From contig JAGRBY010000043.1 of assembly GCA_020433835.1 (NCBI GenBank), forward strand, positions 1 through 22,079: DNA of 22,079 nt, read 5' to 3'. Under the pieces are notes generated by a model. That model was not told the origin of the DNA, made no database searches, and saw only the letters and a program-made list of their open reading frames with translations. The translations under genes and the position numbers were made by a program. The DNA is from Anaerolineae bacterium (GTDB lineage Bacteria > Chloroflexota > Anaerolineae > 4572-78 > J111). Below are positions 4,010-22,079 of this stretch, piece by piece; position 1 is the stretch's first letter, and every line of letters begins with the position of its first letter.

Positions 4010-5191
4010 ATGCTATCAGGCCACAATTTGATATATTTTGCTCCGGAAACATGGGATGGATTATGGCGTAATCGGCATCAACTGATGTCCATTTTTGCCC
4101 GTCACAATAAAGTGCTGTTTGTTGAAGGCCGTTACCACCTGCGCTCATTGGTAAAAAAGTGGCGATCAGGCCAGGTAAAGCTGTCTGACTTTCAACAGCC
4201 GGCTCTGCGGCAGGTTGCTCCCAACTTGTTTGTGCTGCGCTATCCGCTATGGGCACCCATTAGCGGGAATTTTGGGGCTATTACCCAAAAAATCAGGCAA
4301 AGCGTGTTACAAACGGCGCTCAAAAAGCTCGCTATGGACAGGCCGATTGTTTGGTTTTCGCGCCCAAACATGCGCGACCTGCTCGATGAGGTACCGTCGG
4401 CCCGGTTGCGGATTTACCATGTGGTTGATGAATATACGGCTTATTCCGGGCTGTCGCAGTATCGCGCAGAGCGCATCGCTCAGGCTGAACAAACGATGCT
4501 GACCAACGTTGATATGGTGGTGGTTGTCTCTCCCAAGCTGTACGAGGCCAAGCGACCCTATAATCCTAACACGTATCTGGTGGCAAACGGCGTCGATTTC
4601 TCAAGCTACAGTCAAGCTCTGGCCAATCCAACGCTGCCGGATGCTCTGCTGAAGATAAAAGAGCCGCGATTAGGATACATCGGGCTTATCGGCGATAAGC
4701 TCAATCTCACGATGGTCAAGGATTTGGTCGAAAACCGGCCTGAGTGGTCGCTGGTGCTGCTGGGGACCGACGATATTGCCAAGCAAGCCGCCACTTGGAC
4801 GGCCTTAAAGGTACTGCCGAACGTTCATCACCTTAAGCCCGTAGCCGCCGACCAGGTGGCCAACTATGTAAAAGGATTTCAAGTCGGGTTGATGCCCTAC
4901 AAACAAAACCAACACGCCGATAATATAAGCCCGTTAAAGCTGTACGATTATTTGGCAGCCGGTTTGCCTATCGCCGCTGTTGATATTCCGGCGGTGCGGG
5001 CCTTTGGCGATCATGTACACATTGCCGACGCACCACCCGCTTTCTCGGCCGCTGTCGCCGCCGCTTTGGCCGACCAGGTTCCTGAGCGGCGGCAGGCCCG
5101 TCGAGATTTGGCTGCCCACCATACCTGGGAGGCCAGGGTAGAGCAGCTTTCTCACCTAATAGAGAGCCACATGGCGGTTAAGAGCGGCTGA
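4010..5191 (+). CDS. GT-B glycosyltransferase (TuaH/GT4-like)
   Basis: This 393-residue cytoplasmic enzyme is likely to transfer one sugar of the polysaccharide repeat unit from a nucleotide sugar. The N-terminal half ends in IYHVVDEYTAYSG (135-147), the region before the interdomain linker in TuaH-like enzymes. The C-terminal Rossmann half starts near LGYIGLIGDK (221-230) and holds the donor-site stretch SPLKLYDYLAAGLPIA (307-322), where the usual E-x7-E pattern is replaced by the PLKLYDYLA form common in this subgroup. No signal peptide or membrane segment is seen. The ATG follows GAGG with a short spacer. It is the first gene of the plus-strand series and is separated from the next by a repeat cluster, so it may be transcribed alone. 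Donor and acceptor cannot be read from sequence. Confidence 0.85.
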   Translation: MLSGHNLIYFAPETWDGLWRNRHQLMSIFARHNKVLFVEGRYHLRSLVKKWRSGQVKLSDFQQPALRQVAPNLFVLRYPLWAPISGNFGAITQKIRQSVLQTALKKLAMDRPIVWFSRPNMRDLLDEVPSARLRIYHVVDEYTAYSGLSQYRAERIAQAEQTMLTNVDMVVVVSPKLYEAKRPYNPNTYLVANGVDFSSYSQALANPTLPDALLKIKEPRLGYIGLIGDKLNLTMVKDLVENRPEWSLVLLGTDDIAKQAATWTALKVLPNVHHLKPVAADQVANYVKGFQVGLMPYKQNQHADNISPLKLYDYLAAGLPIAAVDIPAVRAFGDHVHIADAPPAFSAAVAAALADQVPERRQARRDLAAHHTWEARVEQLSHLIESHMAVKSG

Positions 5192-5665
5192 TCGAGGCGA
5201 AGCGCCAAAACTCTAACTTTTCTCACATAAAACTCCTATTATTTTTTTAGAGATATGTGCTAGCATCTTTAGCAGATATCTAAGGCTCTTTTACTTTACC
5301 ACTACCTTTGCACTTTAAAGGACTACGACAAGAAACCAGGGTTTTTAGCATTAAAAAGAAACATACTATGTTTGCACTTTAAAGTATCACAACAAGAAAC
5401 CAGGGTTTTTAGCGTTAAAAAGGAACGTCTTTTGCCCCGAAAGGGTATCAATTAGGCATCAAAACCCTGGTTTCTAAAAAAGTGCAAACATAGTGAGAAA
5501 CATCTTTTGCCCAAAAGGGTATCAATGAGAGATCAAAACCCTGGTTTCTAAAAAAGTGCAAACATAGTGACTTACGTTCGCTCCATACTTTAACAATATT
5601 CCACTTCCTGCATTTTCCCTTTTTCTCATTCAAGTTAGTTGACACTCTGGTCACGTCTAAAGGTT
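5192..5665. other. Intergenic region filled by a nested palindromic repeat cluster
   Basis: No gene is supported here. The central 5300-5569 is a cluster of four related terminal-repeat arms, listed separately. The flanks (5192-5299 and 5570-5665) are AT-rich, with no hairpin plus T-run that would qualify as a terminator. A 68-codon minus-strand frame (5448-5654) is only the repeat read through and is not a gene. Confidence 0.7.
5300..5569. mobile_element. Nested or tandem MITE-like palindromic elements (CACTAyGTTTGCACTTT ends)
   Basis: Four copies of one terminal arm are present. Two face right (CACTACCTTTGCACTTT at 5300; ACTATGTTTGCACTTT starting near 5366) and two face left (AAAGTGCAAACATAGTGA ending near 5496 and 5570). 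Inside each arm is AGAAACCAGGGTTTT (5331-5345, 5395-5409) or its complement AAAACCCTGGTTTCT (5461-5475, 5535-5549). The two left-facing arms are identical over 39 bp (5458-5496 and 5532-5570) and 74 bp apart, as if part of the element had duplicated. A short core, CTTTTGCCC..AAAGGGTATCAAT, lies between arms. A related element is at 15456-15572. No transposase is encoded. Confidence 0.7.
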
Positions 5666-6907
5666 ATGAAACATCGTATTTTGTATGTTCAAAAAACTGT
5701 TGGCGGTGGGTCTATATTTAGCCTTTTTGAATTGGTTCGCGGTATCAATCGCGATTTGTATGAACCCACCGTTCTTTTTTATCAAACAAATCCGTTTATC
5801 ACCAAGTTTCAAGACATCGGCGCCAAAGTTATTGTATTAAGCGAAAAGCCAGAAAACAACAAAGTTTCTGTTCAGCACATTTCACAACCTAAACCGCGTA
5901 ATGCTATTGTTGATGCTATCTATGGTAATACCTGGATACGCACCAATTGGTGGGAGGCCAAACAGGTTTATGCGGTTTTTCGTGAAGACTGGCCGATAAT
6001 CCAACGTGTAGCGCAGGCAATCGAAAAGGAAAAGATAGACCTCGTTCATCATAATAACAGCCTGCCGGGCAATAAAGCCGCTATCCTTGCTGCCCGCCGG
6101 GTACAGGTACCGCAGATTTGTCACGTAAGGATGATTCATCAGCGGCTGTCTTGGGTCGAAAAGCAGCTTTCACGCTTTGTAGATTGTTTTGTTTATATCT
6201 CAAATGCGGTTCAGCAAAGTTATCGCCAAAGTGGAATTGTTGAGAAAGCCGGGCGCGTTATCCACAATCCCATTGATGTGGACCGCTACACCCAGCCGTC
6301 CTCAGCCGCTAACGTGCGGGCTGAATTTGGCGTAACTGACCAGGACTGTTTAATTAGTAACGTGGGCCGCCTGGATTGGTGGAAGGGGCATGATTTTTTC
6401 CTACAAGCCGTGGCGCAGCTCATTCAGGCTCATCCCAACAGCAAAGTACTTATTGTGGGCGAAGCGAACAATAGGCCCAGCAATCAAGCGTACCTTCAAA
6501 AATTACATCGGTTGGTGCATGACTTAAATTTGTCAAAGCATGTGGTTTTCACCGGCTTTCGGGCTGACATCCCTACCATTATGCAGGCTTCGGATATGAT
6601 TGTGCATAGCGCCTCGCAGCCGGAGCCGTTTGGGCGCGTTATTGTCGAAGGGATGGCCGCCGGTCGGCCGGTAATCGCTACTGCCGCGGGTGGAGTGCTC
6701 GATATTATCGATGATCAGGTAACAGGCTTACTTGTTGCCCCGCAAGATATCAACGCGATGGCCCAGGCTATGATATATCTGGTTCAGCATCCGGATCGCG
6801 CCGGCGAAATAGGGCGGCAAGGGCAAATTGAGGCGCAAAGAAGTTTTACGGTTGGGCAGCACGTTTTAGCGGTTCAAGATATCTACTCGCATTTTCTTAT
6901 GAACTAG
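5666..6907 (+). CDS. GT4-family glycosyltransferase
   Basis: This 413-residue retaining GT-B enzyme probably adds a sugar to the lipid-linked repeat unit at the inner membrane face. Seen in sequence: an N-terminal Rossmann start MKHRILYVQKTVGGGS with the glycine loop (12-15), a linker sugar-site stretch NPIDVDRY (201-208), the C-domain opener SNVGRLDWWKGHDFF (231-245), and the E-x7-E donor motif EPFGRVIVE (320-328) followed by GMAAGRPVIATAAGG. These are hallmarks of the GT4 (glycosyl transferases group 1) family, and the length is normal. I chose the ATG at 5666 because the protein there begins with the canonical beta-strand. A TTG at 5639 would add nine residues that match nothing. AAAGG just before the ATG is a weak ribosome site. 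Confidence 0.9.
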   Translation: MKHRILYVQKTVGGGSIFSLFELVRGINRDLYEPTVLFYQTNPFITKFQDIGAKVIVLSEKPENNKVSVQHISQPKPRNAIVDAIYGNTWIRTNWWEAKQVYAVFREDWPIIQRVAQAIEKEKIDLVHHNNSLPGNKAAILAARRVQVPQICHVRMIHQRLSWVEKQLSRFVDCFVYISNAVQQSYRQSGIVEKAGRVIHNPIDVDRYTQPSSAANVRAEFGVTDQDCLISNVGRLDWWKGHDFFLQAVAQLIQAHPNSKVLIVGEANNRPSNQAYLQKLHRLVHDLNLSKHVVFTGFRADIPTIMQASDMIVHSASQPEPFGRVIVEGMAAGRPVIATAAGGVLDIIDDQVTGLLVAPQDINAMAQAMIYLVQHPDRAGEIGRQGQIEAQRSFTVGQHVLAVQDIYSHFLMN

Positions 6908-7008
6908 TTTTACATCAACGTTACCAAAAGAAAGACCTGGTTTTCTGTTAGAACTTAAATAAACACATCGTTTTACATTTTATACAACATCAAAGAGTGC
7001 TCTAAGTT

Positions 7009-8073: not shown

Positions 8074-8154
8074 CTGTTATCCGTGTGTGAAACACGTTAA
8101 CCGCTGTTGTTAGTGGGTTCTGATTTCAATTCTTAATATCGACAGGGAAATTTT

Positions 8155-9669
8155 GTGTCATTCTTAACGCGATCTATCGGGTTTGCCCAAACCTATGGGT
8201 CTGGCTTTTTCTCTAAAATAAAAAATATACTGATTGTTTTTAGCGTTGTGGGGCTTGGGGTTGTTTTTGGTTATTTGATGAACCAGTCTCAAGAAACAGC
8301 GTGGTTAGTAACCTCGCTAACGCTGCTATTGGCGCTGATCCTTATTACCAACTATAAGCCGCTCTTCGGCTTTATTTTAATTATCCCTTTCTACTCTTTT
8401 CTTGAGCCGTACATTGAAATTAATATGGGTGCAGGCTTACCAGATTTGTCATTTAGCCGCTTTATGGTGGTCTTTTTGGCTATCTTTATGCTGGCGCAAG
8501 GGGCTATTAAAAAATTCGAAATCAAGCGGATTAGTATTGTTGAATTTTGTGCAGCCGGCATATTAATCGGTATTGGCTCTTCCGCCGCCGGCGCGAGTGA
8601 CGCCATACGGATGTTTCAGGTGCTGCTGAGTCGATTTGTGGTGCCGCTCAGCCTCTATTTCTTCGCGCGAAATCTTATTCAAAGCAAACAAGATCTCAAT
8701 AAATTTTTGTGGGGCATTTCGCTTTTGGGCCTGGCCGGATCGATTTATGCCATTTACGAAATTTATACCGGTAATATCCTTTTCGCCGGTCTGGATTTTG
8801 ATGCGGAAGCCGCCCGAACCACCTACTCCGGAAGTTTAACCTTGCTAAATGGTTTGTTTGGACGATCGCCGGTCTTCGGCCGTATATTTGCGATGACAAT
8901 TCCCATATCGTTTTACCTGCTCTTCGATAGTAAAGATAAGAGAGCGAAAACGCTGCTGACCTTAGCGCTTATGGTTCAGTTTTATGGATTGTTTTTAACG
9001 TATAACCGTACCTCCTGGTATGCGGCCATTATTGGTTTAACCATTTTGCAACTCTTTTACGCGCAATTTAGGCTCGCTTATATTGTCATTGTCCTGGTGG
9101 CGGCCCTTAGCTTGTGGGCCATGTGGGATCAACTCCAAAAAACCGACGTAGTTGAAGATCGTGTTAACAGAAATTCGGAAACCTTCAACGGCCGAACCGA
9201 AATGTGGGAAGCCGCGCGTGAAATGTGGAAAGTGAAGCCTATCCGCGGTTGGGGCGAAGGCGCTTTTGAGAAAGAGTCAGCGCGATTTCGCCCAGACGGC
9301 AGGAATGTAAACTTTCGCTCTACCCAAAGCGAATATTGGGATATCCTTGTTCACTACGGGCTGATAGGCTTTGTGCCTTATTTCCTCTTTTTGTTTATTC
9401 CTTTGTTGTATAGTGTTGTTCTATTTTTTCTGTCTCGCTCTGCGGGCTGGTCCGGCTTTATTAATCCCGGTATCATCAGCATCTATTGGACGGTGCTGAT
9501 AGTCTTTTTGTTAGGTGGCTATACCGTTCCGGTTAACAATCCCATTGGGCGAATGATTCCCTTTGCGGTCGCGGGGGCTATTGTTGGCACCCATCAAGAT
9601 TTAGCCCGCAACACCTTGCTGGCTCTGTTCAAAATAAATCCGTTTAGAAAGAAGCCGGTAACGCAGTAG
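8155..9669 (+). CDS. O-antigen polymerase/ligase-family membrane protein (Wzy/WaaL-like)
   Basis: This 504-residue polytopic membrane protein has roughly ten to twelve hydrophobic segments. The large extracytoplasmic loop typical of the Wzy_C/O-antigen-ligase family lies between about 325 and 395, and contains NGRTEMWEAAREMW (345-358) and RGWGEGAFE (364-372). YNRTSWYA (283-290) precedes it and LVHYGLIGFVPYF (398-410) follows. It likely joins undecaprenyl-linked repeat units (polymerase) or moves the finished chain to an acceptor (ligase); sequence alone does not separate these roles. Lying directly after the Wzz-like gene favours polymerase. The start is GTG at 8155, with AGGG at 8144-8147 and a 7-nt spacer. 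Confidence 0.87.
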   Translation: MSFLTRSIGFAQTYGSGFFSKIKNILIVFSVVGLGVVFGYLMNQSQETAWLVTSLTLLLALILITNYKPLFGFILIIPFYSFLEPYIEINMGAGLPDLSFSRFMVVFLAIFMLAQGAIKKFEIKRISIVEFCAAGILIGIGSSAAGASDAIRMFQVLLSRFVVPLSLYFFARNLIQSKQDLNKFLWGISLLGLAGSIYAIYEIYTGNILFAGLDFDAEAARTTYSGSLTLLNGLFGRSPVFGRIFAMTIPISFYLLFDSKDKRAKTLLTLALMVQFYGLFLTYNRTSWYAAIIGLTILQLFYAQFRLAYIVIVLVAALSLWAMWDQLQKTDVVEDRVNRNSETFNGRTEMWEAAREMWKVKPIRGWGEGAFEKESARFRPDGRNVNFRSTQSEYWDILVHYGLIGFVPYFLFLFIPLLYSVVLFFLSRSAGWSGFINPGIISIYWTVLIVFLLGGYTVPVNNPIGRMIPFAVAGAIVGTHQDLARNTLLALFKINPFRKKPVTQ

Positions 9670-9702
9670 TTAGTAGTTTTTAACACGGGCGATTTCAGCG
9701 TT

Positions 9703-13297: not shown

Positions 13298-14176
13298 ATG
13301 AAACTTGAAATCAAAAAGCCTATTTTTGTCGTTGGCGTTGGTCGCAGCGGTTCTTCAATCTTTCATAAAATACTGTGCGAACATCCCCATGCAGCTTGGC
13401 TATCGGCTTTAGGTGATACCCATTTTAATAAACTTGGGCTTCACACGCGCTTTATGAAAGCGATTGATTACCCCGTTGTGGGGCCATACTTGAAAAACAA
13501 ATATATACCGTCAGAATGTTACAACTTCTGGGAGTATCAGTGCAAAGGCTTCCGGCGGCCGTTTCGAGATTTAGGGCCTGATGACGTTACCAACAAAACG
13601 AAAACAAAAATTCAAAAAGCGATGACGGCGCTGCTAACACCCAAACGCGATAGGTTATGTCTTAAAATTACAGGCTGGCCACGCATCGGTTTTTTAAAGG
13701 AGATATTTGAAGACGCAAAATTTGTCCACATTGTCCGCGATGGGCGGGCGGTGGTTAATTCTATGATCAATGTCGATTGGTGGTGGGGCTGGCGCGGCCC
13801 GCAAAACTGGCGCTGGGGCGAGCTAACCGAAGAGCAGCAGCACGTGTGGGAAAAGCACAATCAATCATTTTTAGCTCTGGCGGCTATCGAGTGGAACATT
13901 TTGATGGATGCTATGGAGCAAGCCCGCTCCTATGTTTGTGCTGAAAATTTTCTCACAATTCGCTATGAAGATGTGTGTGCCAATCCCGTCAGTAATTTTC
14001 AGCAGGTGATTGATTTTTGCGAACTGGATTGGTCGCGGGAATTTGAAAAAGGCATTGGCCGGCATCCGCTTAAGAACACCAATTATAAATGGCAAAAAGA
14101 ATTGACGTCTCAGCAGCACGCGATGCTCGATGAAGTGATGCAGCATTACCTGAAAGCCTATGATTACACCTACTAA
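13298..14176 (+). CDS. Sulfotransferase (PAPS-dependent), first of three
   Basis: This 292-residue protein has both PAPS-binding signatures. The 5'-phosphosulfate loop is VVGVGRSGSS (11-20), following a strand and preceding the helix IFHKIL. The 3'-phosphate site is KFVHIVRDGRAVVNSM (141-156). The C-terminal part has the usual IRYEDVCANPVSNFQQVIDFCEL pattern. It would move a sulfate group from PAPS to a sugar hydroxyl or amine. An odd stretch directly after the 3' site packs six tryptophans into 13 residues (161-173), perhaps a sugar-stacking platform. There is no signal peptide, so sulfation would be cytoplasmic, on the lipid-linked unit. The ATG lacks a strong ribosome site. The acceptor sugar is unknown. 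Confidence 0.88.
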   Translation: MKLEIKKPIFVVGVGRSGSSIFHKILCEHPHAAWLSALGDTHFNKLGLHTRFMKAIDYPVVGPYLKNKYIPSECYNFWEYQCKGFRRPFRDLGPDDVTNKTKTKIQKAMTALLTPKRDRLCLKITGWPRIGFLKEIFEDAKFVHIVRDGRAVVNSMINVDWWWGWRGPQNWRWGELTEEQQHVWEKHNQSFLALAAIEWNILMDAMEQARSYVCAENFLTIRYEDVCANPVSNFQQVIDFCELDWSREFEKGIGRHPLKNTNYKWQKELTSQQHAMLDEVMQHYLKAYDYTY

Positions 14177-14203
14177 ATTTTTGTTTACCGTCTGTAAAAC
14201 GAT

Positions 14204-14207: not shown

Positions 14208-14215
14208 ATACTTTT

Positions 14216-15451
14216 TTGACTTCAAAGATTGGATATTTGGCCCAGGTGTTTCCCCATCTCACCATGACCTTTGTTTATCGAGAGGTAATGGCTCTGCGGA
14301 AGTTTGGCCTTGACGTGGCTACATTTTCAACGTGGCAACCCAAGATAACCGAACTGTCGGAAGAAGCAAAACCGCTTATTCGAGACACCTTTTACATCTT
14401 TCCGTTTCGATGGCTTCCTTTTTTGGTTAGTCATCTTGCCTTTTTTGTGACTCGACCCCGGCGTTATCTGGGTACACTTTTATTTTGTCTGACCCGGCAT
14501 CACAGCTCTTTAAAAAACAGATTTCGAACATTGATGCATTTTGCGCAGGCTGTATACCTAGCCCAAGGGGTTGAGCGCAGTGGCATTCAGCATTTGCACG
14601 TTCACTTTGCCCTGAACGCCACGACGCTGGCGATGGTCATTTCTCGCTTAACCGGCACGCCCTTTAGTTTTACAGCGCACGCCAACGATATTTTTGCCAA
14701 CCCCATCTTGCTACCTGAAAAAATCAAGGCGGCGCGATTTATCGTTGTCATTTCTGAATTTAATCGAAAATTTTTGCAAACTATCGTTCCGAATGAGCCT
14801 ATCGACGAAAAAACGCACGTGGTGCATTGCGGCATCGATGTTGACGCTTTTGCCCCGACAGCCCTCGCTACCCAAAACGAGCGGCCCTTCATTTTGGCGG
14901 TGGGCCGCCTGGTTGAAAAAAAAGGGTATCCCTATTTGATTTTGGCGTGTAAAGAATTGGCGCGGCAGGGTTACCAATTTGAATGTTCGATTATCGGTGG
15001 TGGCCCGGAAGAAGAGAAACTACAGCAGCTTATTGTGGATAATGCCCTTGAAGAGTACGTTCGTCTTGAAGGGGTTGTTTTTCAAGAGCAGATGAAAGAC
15101 TATCTCAGCCGCGCGGATATTTGTGTTTTACCTTGCGTTGTCGCCGCTGATAATGACATGGATGGCATTCCCAACACGCTCATGGAAGCCATGGCCATGG
15201 AAAAGCCGGTCGTTTCAACCATCGTCTCCGGCATACCGGAATTGATCGAGCATGGCCGGTCGGGTTTGTTGGTTCCTGAAAAAGATAGTAACGCTTTAGC
15301 CGATGCGCTGGCTTGTCTTCTTGATGATGAGGCTAGGCGCGTGGCGTTAGGCAAAGCGGGCCGAACTAAAGTAATCGAGGAGTTTGAGATCGAAAAAAAT
15401 TCTTGTACGCTGCTCAAACTTTTTCAATCGTACACACAGCCTTCATTATAG
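14216..15451 (+). CDS. GT4-family glycosyltransferase (WcaL/AmsK-like)
   Basis: This 411-residue GT-B enzyme has the subgroup features of colanic-acid-type WcaL transferases: an N-terminus IGYLAQVFPHLTMTFVYREV, HVHFA (128-132), and FTAHANDIF (152-160). The hinge has VVHCGIDVDAF (202-212). The C-domain opens with AVGRLVEKKGYPYLI (228-242), and the donor motif is DGIPNTLMEAMAMEKPVV (316-333). It probably adds a sugar, often a galactose or glucose in this subgroup, but that is family knowledge only. The start is TTG with a good GGAG site. The stop codon lies inside a 22-bp sequence that recurs 141 bp downstream, on the far side of a palindromic element. Confidence 0.9.
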   Translation: MTSKIGYLAQVFPHLTMTFVYREVMALRKFGLDVATFSTWQPKITELSEEAKPLIRDTFYIFPFRWLPFLVSHLAFFVTRPRRYLGTLLFCLTRHHSSLKNRFRTLMHFAQAVYLAQGVERSGIQHLHVHFALNATTLAMVISRLTGTPFSFTAHANDIFANPILLPEKIKAARFIVVISEFNRKFLQTIVPNEPIDEKTHVVHCGIDVDAFAPTALATQNERPFILAVGRLVEKKGYPYLILACKELARQGYQFECSIIGGGPEEEKLQQLIVDNALEEYVRLEGVVFQEQMKDYLSRADICVLPCVVAADNDMDGIPNTLMEAMAMEKPVVSTIVSGIPELIEHGRSGLLVPEKDSNALADALACLLDDEARRVALGKAGRTKVIEEFEIEKNSCTLLKLFQSYTQPSL

Positions 15452-15453
15452 AG
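15432..15453. repeat. 22-bp direct repeat, left copy
   Basis: The sequence runs ACACACAGCC...TATAGAG and covers the last codons (QPSL) and stop of the upstream glycosyltransferase. It recurs without mismatch at 15573-15594, flanking the palindromic element between them, as a target duplication would. Confidence 0.85.
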
Positions 15454-15455
15454 GG

Positions 15456-15572
15456 CACTACCTTTGCACTTTAAAGTATTACGACAAGAAACCAGGGTTT
15501 TGATGTCTAATTAACAACCTTCTGGGGCAAAAGATGATTCTTTTTAATGCTAAAAACCCTGGTTTCTAAAAA
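15456..15572. mobile_element. MITE-like palindromic element with flanking 22-bp duplication
   Basis: It starts with CACTACCTTTGCACTTTAAAG, as at 5300, and contains a perfect 15-bp inverted repeat, AGAAACCAGGGTTTT (15487-15501) and AAAACCCTGGTTTCT (15553-15567). Its interior is the reverse complement of the interior seen at 5410-5457, while its left arm keeps the same orientation; the segment between the arms has been inverted. The right end stops after TTTCTAAAAA and lacks the GTGCAAACATAGTG tip. It has no coding capacity and sits between two operon genes. Confidence 0.75.
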
Positions 15573-15594
15573 ACACACAGCCTTCATTATAGAG
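15573..15594. repeat. 22-bp direct repeat, right copy
   Basis: Perfect copy of 15432-15453, on the distal side of the palindromic element. It is non-coding here. Confidence 0.85.
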
Positions 15595-15645
15595 AGTGTT
15601 AAGGGAATTCTCATTGTATAACTGTTTGTTAGGAAAACCATCTCA

Positions 15646-16371
15646 ATGATTCGATTTGTTGTTTTAAGTCGCCAGCGGTCCGGTTCTGCATTTTTAGCGA
15701 CATCTCTCGCCAGCCATCCGGATATCGACTGCTACCGTGAAATATTTTTGCCCAAAAATAGCGATGCTGATGCCTACCGTGCTTATCGGTCGGCCACGTT
15801 GGCGCGTAAGCTGGACTATATGGTGCGCCGCCAAGAGTCGGTCAACGGTTATCTGGTCGATATGTATGCCGCCCGAACTGATGTAAGCGTTCTTGGCTTC
15901 AAATTTATGTACTCTCAGGCTAAAAAATATCCGCAGGTGGTTGAATGGATTAAAGCCAATGATGTTAAAGTGATCCATCTTATCAGAAGCAATACCTTGA
16001 AGATGATGGTTTCTCGCGAAGTCTCACGGTCGCGCAAAATTTACCATTCATCGCAAAAAGTGAGTCAAATGAAGGTGGCCTTAAATCCCTATCTTCTGAA
16101 GTATCGCCTTAGAAGACTTACCGAACAAGTTGAGGCCTATCGTCGGCTCTTTCCCGATAACCCCTACACGGAGGTTATCTACGAAACCTTTGTAGCCAAC
16201 CGTCAGCAAGAAACGCGCCGCATTCTTGATTTTCTCGGTGTGCCTGAAATGGTTTCACTTGAAAGTGCGCTGGTGAAAATCAATTCTGATAGTCTCGCCG
16301 ATGTAATAAAAAACTATGACCAAGTTGTACGGGTCTTGCAGGGAACGTCTTATGAAAAGTTGCTGGCATAA
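15646..16371 (+). CDS. Sulfotransferase-family protein, second of three
   Basis: This small, 241-residue PAPS-type sulfotransferase has a 5'-phosphosulfate loop SRQRSGSAFLATSL (8-21) and a 3'-phosphate site VIHLIRSNTLKMMVSREVS (109-127). The C-terminal segment VIYETFVANRQQETRRILDFLGVP is typical of Stf0/NodH-like enzymes. Apart from these motifs it shares little with the other two sulfotransferases here, suggesting a different acceptor position rather than recent duplication. There is no signal peptide. AGGA lies about 11 nt before the ATG. It follows the palindromic insertion, so its expression depends on read-through of that hairpin or on a local promoter that I cannot identify. Confidence 0.83.
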   Translation: MIRFVVLSRQRSGSAFLATSLASHPDIDCYREIFLPKNSDADAYRAYRSATLARKLDYMVRRQESVNGYLVDMYAARTDVSVLGFKFMYSQAKKYPQVVEWIKANDVKVIHLIRSNTLKMMVSREVSRSRKIYHSSQKVSQMKVALNPYLLKYRLRRLTEQVEAYRRLFPDNPYTEVIYETFVANRQQETRRILDFLGVPEMVSLESALVKINSDSLADVIKNYDQVVRVLQGTSYEKLLA

Positions 16372-16416
16372 CCCCATAATTTATCCTGAACTATTTTTGG
16401 ATGTGAAGTAGATAGC

Positions 16417-17505
16417 ATGAAAAACCACAAAATATTTATTGCTTGGATTGACCATAATCGCCGCAGTCAGCTTATTGCCAAAAAATTTCAGATGCCGTTG
16501 TATCTGGTTCACGCGTTAAAGCGGTTTTATTTTTTGGCTCCGCTGCGCTACGTTTTGCAAACCATGCGTACCGTATCGATTCTTATGCACGAGCGACCGG
16601 ACGTTGTTTTTGTTCAAAACCCGCCTATTTTTGCCGCTTTGGTCGTTTACATGTACGCTAAACTGTTTGGGGCTAAATTCGTTATCGATTCGCATACAGG
16701 TGCCTTAATTGCGCCTTGGTGGAAATGGACTTTACCCCTTCACGCTTTTCTGTCGCGGCGAGCGCTCTTTACGCTGGTTACCAATGCGCATTTGGAGGAT
16801 CTGGTCAAAGCCTGGGGTGCCAATACGTTTATTTTGGCCGATATCCCCACCACCTTTCCGCAAGGGACGGCTTATCCGGTTAACGGTAAATTTAGTCTGG
16901 CCGTCATCAACACCTTTTCCCCGGACGAACCGGTTGAGGAGGTATTGGCCGCCGCCGCCGACTTGCCCGATGTTGATTTTTATATTACCGGTAATCTTAT
17001 TCGCGCCAAAAAGAGTTACTTACAAGAGCATCCGGACAACGTTACGTTCACCGGCTTTATACCCGATGATGTTTATTTTGGGCTGCTCCGTTCGGTTGAG
17101 GCTATTGTTGTTTTAACAAAGGACAATCATACGATGCAGCGTGGTGCGTGCGAGGCGGTTTCGCTGGGTAAACCGATTATTACGTCAAAATGGCCCATCT
17201 TAGAAAGCTATTTCAATAAAGGCACGATCCACGTTACTAACACGGCCGAGGGCATTCGAGAGGGCGTTAGAGCGATGCAAGCCGAAAAGCAGAGCTTGCA
17301 AGAGGCTATTCTTACCCTCCAACAGGAACGCCGATTAGAATGGGAGCAAAAGTGGCTTGAGCTTAACCAACGCATTGATCACGGTTCGGCCCGCGTCGAA
17401 ATGCAAAAGCCGGGCTGGCGCGAGGGTGTAGCGAGCCTTGCCTTCATTGCTTCTGTGGCGTTGATCCTGCGTTGGTTTTTCAACCGAGTTATGATGAGCC
17501 GGTAA
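16417..17505 (+). CDS. GT-B glycosyltransferase with C-terminal membrane anchor
   Basis: This 362-residue protein has a GT-B-like layout. A hydrophobic N-terminal half contains the strand PDVVFVQNPPIFAAL (61-75) and FVIDSHTGA (88-96). A linker is followed by a C-domain that opens near LAVINTFSPDEPVEEVL (161-177) and contains YITGNL, VTFTGFIPDDVYFGLL and the donor-side stretch RGACEAVSLGKPIITSKWP (242-260). After that come a charged coiled coil (about 270-318) and a probable membrane helix (about 337-356, VASLAFIASVALILRWFF). It resembles the polysaccharide glycosyltransferases that act at the membrane. It ends 17 bp before the deacetylase-like gene, indicating one transcript. Confidence 0.78.
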   Translation: MKNHKIFIAWIDHNRRSQLIAKKFQMPLYLVHALKRFYFLAPLRYVLQTMRTVSILMHERPDVVFVQNPPIFAALVVYMYAKLFGAKFVIDSHTGALIAPWWKWTLPLHAFLSRRALFTLVTNAHLEDLVKAWGANTFILADIPTTFPQGTAYPVNGKFSLAVINTFSPDEPVEEVLAAAADLPDVDFYITGNLIRAKKSYLQEHPDNVTFTGFIPDDVYFGLLRSVEAIVVLTKDNHTMQRGACEAVSLGKPIITSKWPILESYFNKGTIHVTNTAEGIREGVRAMQAEKQSLQEAILTLQQERRLEWEQKWLELNQRIDHGSARVEMQKPGWREGVASLAFIASVALILRWFFNRVMMSR

Positions 17506-17522
17506 GGGTAGGTAATATCAAG

Positions 17523-18812
17523 ATGAAGGTAAGTCAACTTCAGTCGTCACTGCTGCGACATTTTATCGTCAATAACACCAAACCCTACGAAGCGATTCTC
17601 AAAAATGTGCGCTCGCGTCCTGATGTGTGGGTGACATCGCAGGGAGACTATATCGACTGGTGGCAAAAGCGCGAAAATTCAACGCTAACCATCGTGGTTG
17701 CCGACGGCCAATGCCGCGTGAGCAGCTCCTTAGAAAATGCCGTCATCGAAAAATTCCCCGGCGAATTTATAGAAACGTCAGTGGTGGCCTGTCCGGAGAC
17801 CACTTTTTCGGGCGAACTTTGGATTACCATCGATAGGCGTATCCCGCACAATGTGTGGCTGATGGAGTTTCTCAAACGCGAAGGCATTTTCAACGTTCGC
17901 GTGGCCGATGAAGGTGAGTTTATGATCTCCTGGGAAGAGGTCGCCCCCTTGATCGAAACTATCGAGACCAAACAACGCGACCGCCGCCGGACTCGACCGT
18001 TTGAGGAAGATGTAATCGCTTTACGGCAGATGGTTATCGACAAATTAGCCCAACGGCATCTGCCGCTGCTGCGGGTGTGGTACCATCAAAAAGTTAGTGG
18101 TATCATTCCCAAAGCTGTCTTTTCGCCCCGCTACGATGTCGATCGGGCCATAACCAACTTGGGACATATTCGGCAGTTGGAAAAAAAGTACAACGTCGAA
18201 AGTACACTTTATCTTCGCGCGTTTTGTCCTTTTTATAATGAAGACGCTATCAGAGCGTTAGCCGAGGCTCCATGGTGTTCCGAAATTGGTCTCCATGGTG
18301 AATTTGTAACCCATGCCCGCCAATACGGGGGCGAATTCCATGCCGCCGCTGTGGAAAAGCTCCGTCTGGAGCGACTCACCGGTCGACGGGTGACAGGTGT
18401 TTGTATGCACGGTGGCGAATTAACACAAAACAAAAGCCAACAAACAGCCCGTATTGTCGATGAAACGGAATTCGCTTACGACACGAGCATGACGTTCCCT
18501 TACTATTTTCCCTTCCGCGAAATCATCAACGGGCGACCGAGCCGCTCGTATCTGCTCTGTCATACGGTCAGCGATATCGCCATTCCGGCTAACTTTAGCT
18601 ACGGCCAGGCGTTGTATGACCAGGCTGTGTCTAAAATGGATGAGATTTATGAAAACCATGGCGTCTTTGTGTTCATGCAGCACCCGGTTTATTTTGGTTT
18701 TCTCACGTATTTACGTGAAATGAAAAATTGGAAACCACTCGCTAAGTTTGCCGCGAACGCTTTTCTGTCGTTTCGTTTCAACGGTCGAAAAACGGGCAGC
18801 GTCTACGGATAG
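17523..18812 (+). CDS. NodB/CE4-like polysaccharide deacetylase-family protein
   Basis: This 429-residue protein (from the ATG at 17523) has a C-terminal deacetylase-like barrel. SPRYDVDRA (201-209) takes the place of the metal-binding TFDDG motif, EIGLHGEFVTH (254-264) the histidine motif, and CMHGGEL (294-300) with YDTSM (319-323) the later strands. It may remove acetyl or other N/O-acyl groups from a sugar. The N-terminal 150 residues contain DVWVTSQGDYIDWWQKR (34-50), a pattern I associate with the tail that follows the barrel in related proteins, so the domain order may be unusual. There is no signal peptide, so it is predicted cytoplasmic. A TTG at 17472 would extend it into the upstream gene and is less likely. 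Activity is unproven. Confidence 0.72.
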   Translation: MKVSQLQSSLLRHFIVNNTKPYEAILKNVRSRPDVWVTSQGDYIDWWQKRENSTLTIVVADGQCRVSSSLENAVIEKFPGEFIETSVVACPETTFSGELWITIDRRIPHNVWLMEFLKREGIFNVRVADEGEFMISWEEVAPLIETIETKQRDRRRTRPFEEDVIALRQMVIDKLAQRHLPLLRVWYHQKVSGIIPKAVFSPRYDVDRAITNLGHIRQLEKKYNVESTLYLRAFCPFYNEDAIRALAEAPWCSEIGLHGEFVTHARQYGGEFHAAAVEKLRLERLTGRRVTGVCMHGGELTQNKSQQTARIVDETEFAYDTSMTFPYYFPFREIINGRPSRSYLLCHTVSDIAIPANFSYGQALYDQAVSKMDEIYENHGVFVFMQHPVYFGFLTYLREMKNWKPLAKFAANAFLSFRFNGRKTGSVYG

Positions 18813-18835
18813 GTATAATGCGTGTGGCTGATCAC

Positions 18836-18842
18836 GAGGGAG
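18836..18842 (+). promoter_or_regulatory. Ribosome binding site that decides the TTG start at 18849
   Basis: GAGGGAG is followed by 6 nt and then TTG. The alternatives, GTG at 18822 and ATG at 18858, have no comparably spaced site. The TTG start gives a short charged N-region before a lipoprotein signal. Confidence 0.62.
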
Positions 18843-18848
18843 TTTTTC

Positions 18849-20399
18849 TTGGAAAGTATGACCCGTCGCTGGCTAGTTTTAGGCATCGGCCTGATGATAA
18901 TAACTCAACTGATCGCATGTCAACCGGCATCCGATACGAATGTTGAAACCCATCATGCTGCCATGCCTGAACAAGACCAAGCTCAACCTCCTGTCGAGGA
19001 ACAACCGCCAGCGGTGGTGGAAGCTACGGCCCTGCCGGAGCCAACACGTCAGAATGACAATGCTTCTGATGAAACCAATGCGCCCGATACGGAAATGATT
19101 CAAGAACCGCTGGCCCACGAAACCAGAGCCTTATGGTCACGCCTGGGGCAGCGAAGTGTTGACATTACCCGGGCCGATGTCGATAAGCTGGTGGCCAAAG
19201 TTGACGAAGCCCATCTGAACGTGATTTTGCTCCTGGCGTATACGCATGGCCGTGTCTTCTTTGAGCCAAGTCATACGCGCTTTCCAAATAGCGCAGAGCG
19301 GCTGCCAAATCGAACCACATTTAAAGATGACGAATACGCAGATACGTTTCGTTATCTGGTTGCCATTCGCGATGCACGACGAGCGGATAATGATCCGACC
19401 AATGACTTTGAAATTCACGCCTGGTTTAACACCCATCGCGGCGGTGAGAAAGAAGATGGTAATCCGGGGCAAGGCCAGCCCCATAAGGCTTTGTTAGAGC
19501 CGTATATGCTTAACGCTATCTTTCCGGAATTTCAGCTTAAGTATGGCCTTTACTATTCTGAAAATGACGACACCATGCTCGACCCGGAAACATCGGATTT
19601 GCATCAGCCTAAATTTAGAGCGTACATGACGGATTTGATGGCCGGTTTAATCGAAGATTATGACTTGGACGGCATTCATCTCGATCACATCAGAACCGGC
19701 GGTATATGTTTCAACAATGAAGCCCTGGATTACCCCGGCACCGCGTATGACTTTCCCGGCTGTCAGGAGGATTACAAAGCTTGGACCAAAAAAATTTACG
19801 GTCAAGAGTACACCTTATGGGACGATACTGACGGGTTCGATCAGGTTGAGGATGGCGGCAGCGGTCGCATAGCGGCCTGGCAGGAATATAATGTGGGCCT
19901 GCTGGTTCAGAGCGTCCATGATGCGGTTAAAGCGGTAAAGCCCAACGCCGTTATCTCGGTGGCCTCGGTGCGTAACGATATTACGCGCTCAAGCCGACAG
20001 CAGCAGATTAACGGTCAGGCTGCCTGGGAGTGGTTACAGAAAGGCTGGATCGATGCCATGTTTGTTACATCCTACCTGGCCGATACGCAGGATGTTGTCG
20101 ACAAAATTGAAATTGTTAGAAGCGCGGTCCCCGATGACGATTTGAAATTGAGAATTTTCCCCGGCTTGGCTACGCAAGACCTGGAAAATAATTCGGGTGA
20201 TTTGTGGTCGGACAAAATTGTTGAGCAGGTAAATGCGGTTATGTATGGCGATTGGTCGGGCCAACCCTTGGTACCTCCGGCCAAAGGAGTCGCTCTTTTT
20301 CGGGATAAAGGTTTATCGGATGAAGCCGTTCGACTTTTAGGGGAGCAGCCGTTTAGTCAGCCGGCTTTACCGTATTGGGGCGAACCCGAAAAGCCGTAG
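18849..20399 (+). CDS. GHL10-family (DUF187-like) glycoside hydrolase-like lipoprotein
   Basis: This 516-residue lipoprotein (from TTG 18849) has signal sequence MESMTRRWLVLGIG... with lipobox LIAC and acylated Cys24. A low-complexity Pro/Glu/Gln/Asp tether follows (25-90). The catalytic-type barrel begins at ETRALWSRLG (91-100). It has HAWFN (190-194), LDPE (244-247) and the central DYDLDGIHLDHIR (270-282), where Asp276 or Asp279 is a candidate catalytic acid. These are features of GHL10 proteins, which are predicted to hydrolyse polysaccharides. It would be anchored outside the cytoplasmic membrane and could cut or process the exported polymer. It lies 36 bp after the deacetylase-like gene, and the two together recall the deacetylase and hydrolase halves of PgaB. 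Substrate and activity are inferred. Confidence 0.85.
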   Translation: MESMTRRWLVLGIGLMIITQLIACQPASDTNVETHHAAMPEQDQAQPPVEEQPPAVVEATALPEPTRQNDNASDETNAPDTEMIQEPLAHETRALWSRLGQRSVDITRADVDKLVAKVDEAHLNVILLLAYTHGRVFFEPSHTRFPNSAERLPNRTTFKDDEYADTFRYLVAIRDARRADNDPTNDFEIHAWFNTHRGGEKEDGNPGQGQPHKALLEPYMLNAIFPEFQLKYGLYYSENDDTMLDPETSDLHQPKFRAYMTDLMAGLIEDYDLDGIHLDHIRTGGICFNNEALDYPGTAYDFPGCQEDYKAWTKKIYGQEYTLWDDTDGFDQVEDGGSGRIAAWQEYNVGLLVQSVHDAVKAVKPNAVISVASVRNDITRSSRQQQINGQAAWEWLQKGWIDAMFVTSYLADTQDVVDKIEIVRSAVPDDDLKLRIFPGLATQDLENNSGDLWSDKIVEQVNAVMYGDWSGQPLVPPAKGVALFRDKGLSDEAVRLLGEQPFSQPALPYWGEPEKP

Positions 20400-20433
20400 T
20401 TTTGGTGCGTGCAGTCTATAGGAAAGAGATAAC

Positions 20434-20579
20434 TAACCCAAGTTGTCACCTTTAGGCCAAACAACCTAATTGAACCGCAAAGACGCAAAGAACACAAAGA
20501 TTTTTTATAAAAACTTGGCGAACTTGGCGTCTTCGCGGTGAAACTTACTTCATCTGCTGATGGGTAGCAACTTGAGTTA
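20434..20579. mobile_element. MITE-like element with TAACYCAAGTTGC ends and GCAAAGACGC cargo
   Basis: The ends TAACCCAAGTTG (20434-20445) and CAACTTGAGTTA (20568-20579) are inverted repeats matching at 11 of 12 positions. The left end is followed by GGCCAAAC, as in the element at 3807. The cargo differs: ACCGCAAAGACGCAAAG (20474-20490) is mirrored by CTTGGCGTCTTCGCGGT (20523-20539) at 15 of 17 positions. Palindromes of this GCAAAGACGC type are, from memory, widespread dispersed repeats in environmental bacteria. No ORF is present. It fills most of the 212-bp gap between the lipoprotein and the third sulfotransferase. Confidence 0.65.
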
Positions 20580-20611
20580 ACTACCTAAATTTTTGATTGT
20601 GGAGATAAAAC

Positions 20612-21529
20612 GTGACCTACGTTTTTATTGTCGGTTTACCCAGAACCGGCACAAAATTAACCGTAAATGTTATAGAGTCATGCCCCCAGAAGCGGTGCTT
20701 TATTACGCCTGAAAATTTTTTCTTGGGCCGTGTACTTCGCCCCGGTGTTCGCCAAAAAATGCAACGTATCGGTGACATGACCATCGACAACAATGTGCGT
20801 ACGTTTGTAGACAATATCTATGCGGGTGAATATTTTGGGGTCTACTGGTGGGAGCTAAACGCCGGCAAATGGGGCATCGATAAAGAAACCATGCTCCAAC
20901 GCCTGCTGGCCTCTGATCGTAGCGATAAAGCCATCTACGAAGTTTTGTTACAAGCGTATGCCGATGAATTGGGCGATAATGTCATCATCGGCGATAAAAG
21001 CGGGCCGCATCTCTACCATGTACCGACCCTGCTGGAGTGGTTTCCCGATGCCAAAGTTATTCACACGCTTCGCGACCCACGGGCTATCCTGGCCTCAGAG
21101 TTGAAGAAGAGTCATCGCCTACTGCAAACCGCCAAAAACCGGAAACCGTCACCCCTTTTGGTAAAGCTGCTAACACCGATATTATCGATTGTTATTATTC
21201 TTTATATCACGATTGCCTGGCTGTACGCTGTAAAATTGCACTATAAGTACAGCAAACGGTATCCGCACAACTATTATCTCTCAAAATTTGAGGATCTGGT
21301 TGCGCACCCGGAGAAAAGTGTTCGCGCGCTTTGCCAATTTTTAGAGATCGAGTTCCATCCCGCCATGCTGGCTCCTTCGCACATTGACTCCAGCTATGCC
21401 GGGGGGCAAGAAAGTGGTTTTGATAGCGAAACGCTTTCCCGCTGGAAAGAGCATCTTAATCCGTGGGTGAACAGTTGGTTGGTATTTTGGGGCAAAAAAT
21501 ATCTGCAAGAATTTGGTTACATTCATTAA
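20612..21529 (+). CDS. Sulfotransferase-family protein, third of three
   Basis: This 305-residue PAPS-type sulfotransferase has a 5'-phosphosulfate loop FIVGLPRTGTKLTVNVI (5-21), then DNVIIGDKSGPH (122-133), and a 3'-phosphate site AKVIHTLRDPRAILASELKK (147-166). The C-terminus has YYLSKFEDLVAHPEKSVRALCQFLEIEF. An unusual strongly hydrophobic stretch, about 183-208 (LVKLLTPILSIVIILYITIA onward), lies where most family members have a soluble helix. It could tether the enzyme to the membrane near its lipid-linked acceptor. The start is GTG at 20612 with GGAG 7 nt upstream. It is only loosely similar to the sulfotransferases at 13298 and 15646. The acceptor is unknown. Confidence 0.87.
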   Translation: MTYVFIVGLPRTGTKLTVNVIESCPQKRCFITPENFFLGRVLRPGVRQKMQRIGDMTIDNNVRTFVDNIYAGEYFGVYWWELNAGKWGIDKETMLQRLLASDRSDKAIYEVLLQAYADELGDNVIIGDKSGPHLYHVPTLLEWFPDAKVIHTLRDPRAILASELKKSHRLLQTAKNRKPSPLLVKLLTPILSIVIILYITIAWLYAVKLHYKYSKRYPHNYYLSKFEDLVAHPEKSVRALCQFLEIEFHPAMLAPSHIDSSYAGGQESGFDSETLSRWKEHLNPWVNSWLVFWGKKYLQEFGYIH

Positions 21530-21556
21530 ACTATCGAGTGAGGCATTTTACATATT

Positions 21557-22079
21557 ATGAAGATAGCTATTTTTGGCTTAGGCTACGTTGGAACCGTCTC
21601 AGCCGCTTGTCTGGCTGATATGGGCCATACCGTTGTGGGGGTTGATATCAACCCCACCAAAGTAAAGTTGATTAATCAAGGCAAGAGTCCTATCGTTGAA
21701 ACGGGTCTGCCCGAGTTGATTGATCGGATGGTAAGCAAAGGGCAGTTATCGGCTACGGTTGAGGCTGCTGAGGCGATGCAGGATGCGGATATTTCTTTGG
21801 TGTGTGTGGGTACGCCGGATAAAGGGAATGGCAGCCCCCTGTTGTCGGCGGTTAGCCGAGCTTGCAGCGACATTGGGCAACATATCTCGGTTGCCGCCGA
21901 TTATCACGTCGTTATCATTCGCAGTACAATTCTACCCGGCACGATGGAGAGAATGGTTGCGCCTACCTTGGAAGCGGCCTCCGGCTTAAAAATAGGTGAA
22001 GATTTGGGTCTTTGTTTCAACCCTGAATTTCTGCGCGAAGGCTCATCCCTTAAAGATTTTTATGATCCGCCGTTTACCC
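21557..22079 (+). CDS. AlgD-like GDP-mannose (or UDP-glucose) dehydrogenase, N-terminal part
   Basis: The first 174 codons are visible and the gene runs off the right edge. The enzyme would oxidise the C6 alcohol of a nucleotide sugar to the uronic acid using NAD, supplying a charged sugar donor. Seen: Rossmann loop GLGYVGTVSAACLA (7-20), VGVDINPTKVKLINQGKSP (27-45) then IVE, LVCVGTP (81-87), IIRSTILPGT (120-129) and CFNPEFLREGSSLKDF (153-168). The forms SPIVE, RSTILPGT and DPPFT follow AlgD-type GDP-mannose 6-dehydrogenase more closely than Ugd-type enzymes, which usually show KSTVPVGT. The catalytic cysteine domain is outside the window. The ribosome site is weak. UDP-sugar specificity remains possible. 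Confidence 0.88.
   Translation, partial: MKIAIFGLGYVGTVSAACLADMGHTVVGVDINPTKVKLINQGKSPIVETGLPELIDRMVSKGQLSATVEAAEAMQDADISLVCVGTPDKGNGSPLLSAVSRACSDIGQHISVAADYHVVIIRSTILPGTMERMVAPTLEAASGLKIGEDLGLCFNPEFLREGSSLKDFYDPPFT

What the first reader, a model, noticed from the sequence alone, without database searches (positions are those of the whole stretch)
4010..22079. Candidate pathway for a sulfated, uronate-containing glycosaminoglycan-like polysaccharide
Seen: three different PAPS-type sulfotransferases, an AlgD-like dehydrogenase start, a heparinase II/III-family lyase, five glycosyltransferases, and Wzz- and Wzy-like proteins, all on one strand. Known: AlgD makes GDP-mannuronate, heparinase-family enzymes cut uronate linkages, and sulfated polysaccharides are uncommon in bacteria. 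Inference: the locus makes a polymer sulfated at up to three positions and containing a uronic acid. I am not aware of a described system with this gene set, but I could not search.
Basis: partly seen in the sequence, partly recalled or inferred. Interest (0 to 1): 0.72.

Follow-up and report, generated by a model that had tools for sequence, protein, structure and literature searches.

The report
Bacterial gene cluster for sulfated polysaccharide
A stretch of DNA from an uncultured Chloroflexota-type bacterium carries the assembly line for an acidic surface polysaccharide that is probably decorated with sulfate, a trait reported in few bacteria and mainly in cyanobacteria; the parts are real, but the predicted uronic acid is of the alginate type rather than the heparin type.

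Summary
On one strand lie five glycosyltransferases, Wzz, Wzy, a heparinase II/III-type lyase with its catalytic residues, three sulfotransferase genes, and the N-terminus of a GDP-mannose-dehydrogenase-type (AlgD-like) gene cut by the contig end.

In Chloroflexota relatives the core (GTs-Wzy-lyase-GTd) recurs, while sulfotransferases are a variable layer: 5 of 8 loci carry at least one within 20 kb of the lyase, and 2 of 8 lie in genomes with no Sulfotransfer_3 match. The window's particular trio is not conserved. L002/L003 share its kinds of tailoring genes most fully (AlgD-type dehydrogenase, deacetylase, GHL10, ST3-type enzymes).

Best reading: a Wzy-dependent anionic exo/capsular polysaccharide, probably sulfated, probably containing mannuronate. 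"Glycosaminoglycan-like" is not supported for the window. It may fit a sister locus (L011) with a UDP-glucose-type dehydrogenase, glucuronyl C5-epimerase, sulfotransferase and lyase.

Sulfated-polysaccharide clusters are already described (synechan; Actinoplanes wps-1; a cyanobacterial MAG with heparinase and mannose dehydrogenase). New variant of a known kind.

The parts
4010..5191 (+). GTa, GT4-type glycosyltransferase (first gene of the run)
   Evidence: PF13524/PF13692; homologues at 348-486 bits in L001, L004 and L011
5666..6907 (+). GTb, GT4-type glycosyltransferase (longest ORF starts at TTG 5639; ATG at 5666 likelier)
   Evidence: PF00534 126.7 bits; homologues in L001, L004, L005, L006, L011, L012
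7009..8073 (+). Wzz-type chain-length determinant without kinase domain
   Evidence: PF02706 31.1 bits; homologues in L001, L004, L006, L011, L012; TM-like segments near both ends
8155..9669 (+). Wzy-type polymerase (O-antigen ligase/polymerase family)
   Evidence: PF04932 64 bits; homologues in L001, L004, L005, L006, L011, L012
9703..10890 (+). GTc, GT4-type glycosyltransferase
   Evidence: PF13692 156 bits
10877..13228 (+). Heparinase II/III-superfamily polysaccharide lyase, PL12-related; no signal peptide or TM segment seen by a hydropathy scan
   Evidence: PF16889/PF07940, PDB 4mmh 158 bits; catalytic N262, Y316, H464, H506
13298..14176 (+). ST1, PAPS sulfotransferase (PF13469); 5'-PSB GVGRSGSS, 3'-PB RDGRAVVNS
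   Evidence: model pLDDT 92; best Foldseek hits STF9 and TPST2
14216..15451 (+). GTd, GT4-type glycosyltransferase, follows the lyase in related loci
   Evidence: 289-558 bits in L001, L004, L005, L006, L011, L012 (also 334 and 314 in Planctomycete loci L009, L010)
15646..16371 (+). ST2, short sulfotransferase, weakly similar to LPS sulfotransferase NodH
   Evidence: PF13469 52.3 bits; PDB 9vki 26.9 bits; homologue 147 bits in G006 about 14 kb upstream of its lyase
16417..17505 (+). GTe, GT4-type glycosyltransferase
   Evidence: 319-468 bits in L001, L004, L005, L011
17523..18812 (+). Carbohydrate-esterase-4-fold (polysaccharide deacetylase-like) protein of a family without a Pfam match (longest ORF starts at TTG 17472)
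   Evidence: model pLDDT 90.5, Foldseek and VIA-align to deacetylases; invariant D205, D207, H258, H296 in the 29-sequence alignment
18822..20399 (+). GHL10-family glycoside-hydrolase-like protein with hydrophobic N-terminus and lipobox-like LIAC
   Evidence: PF02638 38.2 bits; TM-like segment at residue 17
20612..21529 (+). ST3, PAPS sulfotransferase; 5'-PSB GLPRTGTK, 3'-PB RDPRAILAS
   Evidence: PF13469 83.8 bits; six homologues at 188-227 bits, two in L002 and four on the L003 contig
21557..22078 (+). N-terminal 174 residues of a nucleotide-sugar dehydrogenase of the GDP-mannose (AlgD) type, cut by the contig end
   Evidence: 1mfz 179 bits vs 122; full-length relatives in L001, L002 and L004 are clearly AlgD-type

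Best explanation
This is a Wzy-dependent locus for an acidic exo- or capsular polysaccharide in a Chloroflexota (Anaerolineae-type) bacterium. GTa-GTe build a repeat unit; a uronic acid, most likely mannuronate made from GDP-mannose, gives carboxyl charge. Cytoplasmic sulfotransferases probably add sulfate from PAPS before export. A deacetylase-fold enzyme may free an amino or hydroxyl group. Wzy polymerises the repeats and Wzz sets chain length. The lyase keeps the catalytic residues of uronate lyases and, having no visible signal peptide, probably trims or clears misdirected chains inside the cell; the GHL10 lipoprotein may act on the polymer at the surface. Shown: gene content, domain families, motifs, predicted folds of ST1 and the deacetylase-like protein, recurrence of the core. 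Inferred: that the product is sulfated, the identity of the uronic acid, the order of steps, and the role of the lyase.
For: Domains and order. Core recurs in six of eight Chloroflexota relatives by sequence match. L001 has an AlgD-type dehydrogenase, a sulfotransferase, a GT and the lyase in a row. L002/L003 combine AlgD-type dehydrogenase, deacetylase, GHL10, lyase and Wzy with 4 and 7 PF13469 matches within 20 kb of the lyase. Sulfotransferases near the lyase in 5 of 8 Chloroflexota loci, 14 of 58 PF13469 matches against 0.27 expected at random. Deacetylase-like and lyase homologues share 7 contig lengths besides the window's own, chance 0.26. A separate locus, G011:C306, joins 5 PF13469 matches, a flippase and a bifunctional ATP sulfurylase/APS kinase.
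Against: Sulfotransferases are not an invariant part: none in the genomes of G004 and G012 (completeness of these MAGs not told), and the sulfotransferase profile hits only 5 of the 80 lyase loci within about 10 kb, one of them weakly. ST1 is a widespread family (1068 hits) with no contig length shared with the lyase in the lists seen. The dehydrogenase is truncated, so its catalytic cysteine was not seen. In the lyase the residue before the neutralising Asn262 is Asn261, as in the GAG-degrading GAGases II/VII, not the His that alginate activity needs in GAGase III (PMC12088678), which sits badly with a mannuronate substrate. The acceptor of each sulfotransferase is unknown.
Confidence: 0.6

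Rival explanations
1. Polysaccharide locus without a sulfated polymer: the sulfotransferases modify lipids, peptides or small molecules, or a terminal cap, and the main chain is unsulfated.
For: Core loci exist in genomes without any PF13469 match (G004, G012). Weak sequence hits of ST1 and ST3 are mainly to protein-tyrosine sulfotransferases; ST2's best is an LPS sulfotransferase.
Against: Three sulfotransferases interleaved with glycosyltransferases in one same-strand run; repeated sulfotransferases in sister loci. Weak PDB hits say little on the acceptor.
Confidence: 0.2
2. Protein-glycosylation or S-layer-glycan locus: the Wzy_C protein is an O-oligosaccharyltransferase and the sulfated glycan is attached to surface proteins.
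For: Wzy_C covers ligases and polymerases (recalled); TIGR03097 (putative O-glycosylation ligase) hits at 34.9 bits, far below its cut-off of 188.1. A beta-helix/cohesin/dockerin-type protein is encoded next to the run (403-3255) and in L011.
Against: A Wzz-type chain-length determinant adjoins it, which points to polymerisation.
Confidence: 0.15
3. Glycosaminoglycan-like (heparan-like) sulfated polymer in this very organism.
For: Among solved structures the lyase matches only heparinase III chains, with the GAG-type Asn before the catalytic Asn; a deacetylase fold next door; sister loci L011 and L012 have a glucuronyl C5-epimerase.
Against: Dehydrogenase of GDP-mannose type, as in L001, L002 and L004; no C5-epimerase in the window; of the dehydrogenases compared, only that of L011 is nearer the UDP-glucose type (302 vs 280 bits).
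Confidence: 0.12
4. Catabolic locus for a foreign uronate polysaccharide.
For: Lyase plus a GHL10 hydrolase-like protein.
Against: Five glycosyltransferases, Wzz and Wzy; no importer or uronate catabolism family among the 15 window proteins scanned; no secretion signal on the lyase by hydropathy.
Confidence: 0.03

Closest known systems
Synechan (xss) cluster of Synechocystis sp. PCC 6803 (PMC8205485, passages)
   Same: Wzx/Wzy-type cluster with several glycosyltransferases, a PCP protein and two sulfotransferases of different subfamilies; sulfated product shown chemically.
   Different: Heparinase and lyase have 0 occurrences in the main text. The product is described as only four sugars (Rha, Man, Gal, Glc) plus sulfate; regulators XssQRS; other phylum.
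Pseudophormidaceae cyanobacterial MAG of Shark Bay mats (PMC9723792, section 20 and passages)
   Same: Reported with sulfotransferase, glycosyltransferase, exporter, heparinase and mannose dehydrogenase genes and a ~20 kb sulfated-polysaccharide region: the nearest described gene set.
   Different: Cyanobacterium; whether heparinase and dehydrogenase lie inside the 20-kb region I could not check (supplements not seen). The paper says its Chloroflexi MAGs (two) lacked the sulfotransferase gene.
wps-1 cluster of Actinoplanes missouriensis (PMC13390465, passages)
   Same: Wzx/Wzy/Wzz cluster with two sulfotransferases and a glycoside hydrolase; sulfation inferred by its authors.
   Different: Heparinase and uronic have 0 occurrences in the main text; Actinomycetota; mutants made.
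Pontiella sulfatireligans F21 putative sulfated GAG cluster (PMC7356697, passages)
   Same: PF13469-type sulfotransferase within a cluster of GT2/GT4 genes; sulfated GAG-like polymer assayed in culture.
   Different: One of three sulfotransferases is in the cluster; heparinase has 0 occurrences in the main text; Kiritimatiellae.
Alginate biosynthesis (GDP-ManA donor, AlgL lyase; PMC4432689, passages)
   Same: GDP-mannuronate donor and a uronate lyase in the biosynthetic system.
   Different: Alginate uses Alg8/44 for polymerisation and transport, not Wzy; AlgL is of another lyase family (recalled); no sulfation (recalled).

Membership tests
PAPS-dependent sulfotransferase (PF13469/PF00685) | Profile match above curated cut-off | tested here: met
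   93.2, 52.3 and 83.8 bits vs 27
PAPS-dependent sulfotransferase (PF13469/PF00685) | 5'-phosphosulfate loop and 3'-phosphate Arg/Ser (motif names recalled) | tested here: met
   ST1 and ST3 clear; ST2 has RSGS and a less typical RSNTLKMMVS
PAPS-dependent sulfotransferase (PF13469/PF00685) | Fold | tested here: met
   ST1 only; pLDDT 92; Foldseek prob 1.00 to STF9 and TPST2, TM-score by query length 0.47-0.58 in the top ten
PL12 heparinase III (HepC) | NCBIfam equivalog cut-off | tested here: not met
   209.5 vs 700 and 158.9 vs 600 bits: related, not HepC
Hepar_II_III-superfamily lyase | Asn, Tyr, His catalytic residues (HepIII Asn240, Tyr294, His424; PMC12088678 Table 4) | tested here: met
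   N262, Y316, H464 aligned with a chain offset of 24 counted by hand; invariant in A1
GDP-mannose 6-dehydrogenase (AlgD) | Closer to AlgD than to UDP-glucose dehydrogenase | tested here: met
   179 vs 122 bits over 174 residues
GDP-mannose 6-dehydrogenase (AlgD) | Catalytic Cys and C-terminal domain | not testable with these tools
   Gene cut at the contig end; present in the L001 homologue
Glycosaminoglycan biosynthesis | Glucuronate/iduronate donor or epimerase | tested here: not met
   Window dehydrogenase is AlgD-type and no C5-epimerase is seen; the contig is truncated
Glycosaminoglycan biosynthesis | Hexosamine in a repeating disaccharide | not testable with these tools
   Needs polymer chemistry
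Wzx/Wzy-dependent polysaccharide locus | Wzy and PCP/Wzz | tested here: met
   PF04932 64 bits, PF02706 31.1 bits
Wzx/Wzy-dependent polysaccharide locus | Flippase and initiating phosphoglycosyltransferase | tested here: inconclusive
   None in the window; contig ends; no genome held
Carbohydrate esterase family 4 | Deacetylase fold | tested here: met
Carbohydrate esterase family 4 | Canonical H-S/T-x-x-H motif (recalled) | tested here: not met
   Invariant H258 without a second His four residues on; no Pfam family at E <= 0.01
Synechan-type sulfated EPS cluster | Sulfotransferases within a Wzy-type GT cluster | tested here: met
Synechan-type sulfated EPS cluster | Sulfated product | not testable with these tools
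   Needs chemistry

The most novel reading that the evidence does not exclude
Chloroflexota carry a modular acidic-polymer system: one recurring core (glycosyltransferases, Wzz, Wzy, heparinase-type lyase) is tailored in some lineages as a sulfated mannuronate polymer (window, L001-L003) and in others as a true heparan-sulfate-like polymer, made with a UDP-glucose-type dehydrogenase, a glucuronyl C5-epimerase and a sulfotransferase (L011): an independent bacterial counterpart of heparan sulfate synthesis with its own lyase built into the locus.
Probability: 0.25. Interest if true: 0.7.

Novelty: new variant of a known kind. Interest (0 to 1): 0.42.

Why it matters
Two papers seen here (passages) treat bacterial sulfated polysaccharides as a cyanobacterial trait (PMC8205485, PMC13390465), although Pontiella cultures have been reported to make sulfated GAG-like polymers (PMC7356697). 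Sulfated GAG-like material is found in granular sludge and its producers are called unclear (PMC7356697, PMC10483923). If right, Chloroflexota join the candidate producers, and the loci offer sulfotransferases, lyases and an epimerase with matched natural substrates.

Tried and rejected
Conservation of the sulfotransferase trio with the lyase: rejected. PAPS genes as support: APS kinase is in 12 of 12 relatives but also in 11 of 14 control genomes, so this says nothing; only the fused ATP sulfurylase/APS kinase inside the sulfotransferase locus G011:C306 is informative. The PF00884 'sulfatase' beside Wzy in L002, L003 and L006 looked like a desulfating partner, but the usual C/S-x-P-x-R site (recalled) reads S/T-x-P-x-H, so it is not counted as a sulfatase; the N-sulfoglucosamine-sulfatase C-terminal hit is not used either. 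Contig-length matching used only the 120, 85 and 120 listed hits (119, 85 and 119 with a contig length), not all 760 and 1068; lengths were typed in; one lyase-deacetylase match (5028) is between different source labels, six are not; deacetylase and ST1 share two lengths (chance 0.82), which is no evidence. The chance assumes random scatter, uses counts entered by hand, and counts profile matches, some of which are pieces of one gene. Of 165 relatives, 80 were kept; 12 were mapped in detail, 8 of them Chloroflexota by record title; the other 68 were scanned only with window-protein and sulfotransferase profiles. That profile was built from window, L002 and L003 members and is of limited reach. 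The greedy gene map hides one of the seven sulfotransferases of the L003 contig and GTd of L005, which searches show. Nothing was learned from the short neighbourhoods of the C5-epimerases in G097 and G201. Active-site completeness of GHL10 was not tested.

Full report
What is there. The window is a whole contig of 22,079 bases from an organism for which no genome is held. All eight lyase homologues in the listed top 120 that carry an organism name are Chloroflexota (Anaerolineae, Caldilineaceae, Anaerolineales, Chloroflexi). From 4010 to the end, fourteen genes run on the + strand with mostly small gaps (194, 212 and 447 bases at three places): five GT4-type glycosyltransferases, Wzz, Wzy, a heparinase II/III-type lyase, three sulfotransferases, a deacetylase-fold protein, a GHL10-type lipoprotein and the start of a nucleotide-sugar dehydrogenase.

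Are the sulfotransferases real? All three exceed the PF13469 cut-off. ST1 and ST3 keep the 5'-phosphosulfate loop and the 3'-phosphate Arg and Ser (motif names recalled); ST2 is shorter and less typical, nearest to an LPS sulfotransferase by sequence (26.9 bits). A confident model of ST1 (pLDDT 92) matches mycobacterial STF9 and human TPST2 (probability 1.00, TM-scores by query length 0.47-0.58 in the top ten). The acceptor is unknown.

Lyase. It is related to heparinase III (158 bits to 4mmh) but far below the HepC cut-offs, so it is not filed as HepC; it also passes the Pfam alginate-lyase cut-off (27 vs 22.2 bits). The Asn, Tyr and His of the heparinase III triad (Table 4 of PMC12088678, seen as passages) correspond to N262, Y316 and H464, invariant in the 25-sequence alignment. 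The same paper argues that this domain is shared by GAG and alginate lyases, and that a His before the Asn is needed for alginate activity in GAGase III; here that residue is Asn261, the state of GAGases II and VII. This is evidence against an alginate-like substrate, whereas the dehydrogenase points to mannuronate; the conflict is unresolved. No signal peptide or TM segment shows up by hydropathy.

Uronic acid. The window's dehydrogenase N-terminus is closer to GDP-mannose dehydrogenase than to UDP-glucose dehydrogenase (179 vs 122 bits). Full-length relatives in L001 (495 vs 274), L002 (509 vs 262) and L004 (533 vs 270) are AlgD-type; the L003 gene matches that of L002 at 869 bits. The one on the L011 contig is nearer to UDP-glucose dehydrogenases (302 vs 280). 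The window is therefore more likely a mannuronate than a glucuronate locus, and 'glycosaminoglycan-like' is not supported.

Comparison with relatives. The genome scan gave 165 relatives, of which 80 were kept; I mapped the nearest 12, 8 of them Chloroflexota (L001-L006, L011, L012). Homologues of the window's Wzy lie in 6 of these 8 (L001, L004, L005, L006, L011, L012), and GTd follows the lyase in the same six; in L002 and L003 the Wzy is more distant (found by Pfam in L002, and by homology to it in L003). Sulfotransferases lie within 20 kb of the lyase in 5 of 8 (L001, L002, L003, L006, L011), 14 of the 58 PF13469 matches of these genomes, against 0.27 expected from random scatter. The genomes of L004 and L012 have no match at all (their completeness is not told); L005 lies on a 9.6-kb contig. 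Among all 80 loci my sulfotransferase profile finds hits in only 5, one weak, so the association is at most a Chloroflexota feature and not one of the lyase family. In the class at large 176 of 298 genomes have PF13469 over its cut-off, while 16 of 298 have the lyase at E <= 1e-60.

What travels with the lyase. Among listed homologues, the deacetylase-fold protein and the lyase share 7 contig lengths apart from the window's own (chance 0.26), while ST1 and the lyase share none (chance 0.34). L002 and L003 match the window's kinds of tailoring genes most fully: AlgD-type dehydrogenase, a polysaccharide deacetylase (another subfamily), GHL10, and six ST3-type enzymes at 188-227 bits, besides lyase and Wzy. 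G006 carries an ST2-type enzyme and a deacetylase upstream of its lyase. The window is thus one combination of an interchangeable set of tailoring genes.

The heparan-like sister. In L011 (G011:C222) the same core is followed by a D-glucuronyl C5-epimerase gene (PF06662, 160 bits), with a sulfotransferase beside GTa and a UDP-glucose-type dehydrogenase on the same contig. L012 has the epimerase in the same place, cut by the contig end, with the missing part apparently on another contig. PF06662 is rare: 5 of 298 class genomes, 4 over the cut-off; two of these four (G011, G012) also have the lyase at E <= 1e-60, and in both only GTd lies between lyase and epimerase. Seven further genomes have none. 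This, more than the window, is where a GAG-like reading has support.

How it most likely works. Repeat units are built in the cytoplasm, with mannuronate and sulfate added there since PAPS and GDP-mannuronate are cytoplasmic (established knowledge), then flipped, polymerised by Wzy with Wzz, and displayed or released. The lyase, present in each compared locus by construction of the search, is read as a trimming or clearance enzyme, by analogy to AlgL in alginate synthesis (inference).

Known systems. Sulfated-polysaccharide clusters with Wzy machinery are described: synechan (PMC8205485, passages) and wps-1 of Actinoplanes (PMC13390465, passages; sulfation inferred there). There is a putative GAG cluster in Pontiella (PMC7356697, passages), and two cyanobacterial MAGs of Shark Bay mats have ~20 kb regions for sulfated polysaccharides, one MAG with heparinase and mannose dehydrogenase (PMC9723792, section 20). 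Sulfated GAG-like material is reported from granular sludge, with few sulfotransferase hits in the genomes searched there (PMC10483923, passages). Nine answered searches of the paper library, judged from their listings (one search listed 20 of 31), showed no paper describing such a locus in Chloroflexota; the library holds open-licence papers only, so absence is weak. Verdict: confirmed observation, partly supported interpretation, new variant of a known kind.

Noticed in passing
window 403-3255 (-): Protein with fn3-like, right-handed beta-helix and cohesin domains, PT-rich linkers and a dockerin match below cut-off, divergent from the cluster; a 242-bit homologue lies at the end of the L011 locus (G011:C222 47609-50494).
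   Followed up: partly
G011:C222 43170-44273 (L097:18671-19774) and G012:C90 1-726: D-glucuronyl C5-epimerase (PF06662) genes separated only by GTd from the heparinase-type lyase in two Anaerolineae: candidates for iduronate-containing polymers.
   Followed up: partly
G011:C306 1-30000 (L087, L098): Second polysaccharide locus with 5 PF13469 matches, a Polysacc_synt flippase, a DegT aminotransferase and a bifunctional ATP sulfurylase/APS kinase: apparently a dedicated PAPS supply inside a sulfation locus.
   Followed up: partly
L002 (G002:C192 28171-29562), L003 (G003:C200 27597-29000), L006 5497-6900: PF00884 sulfatase-family genes beside Wzy with S/T-x-P-x-H in place of the usual C/S-x-P-x-R site; function unclear, possibly a transferase.
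   Followed up: partly
window 17523-18812 and its 84 homologues (P0122-P0205): A family without Pfam match, deacetylase fold, conserved RYDVD-, LHGEF- and MHGGE-like motifs; the three homologues with an organism name are Anaerolineae or Chloroflexota, and four carry a source label 'peptidoglycan/xylan/chitin deacetylase'.
   Followed up: yes
window 13298-14176: ST1 belongs to a widespread, strongly conserved sulfotransferase family (1068 hits; organism names in the listed 120 include Sumerlaeia, Firmicutes and Caldilineaceae), which suggests transfer between phyla.
   Followed up: no
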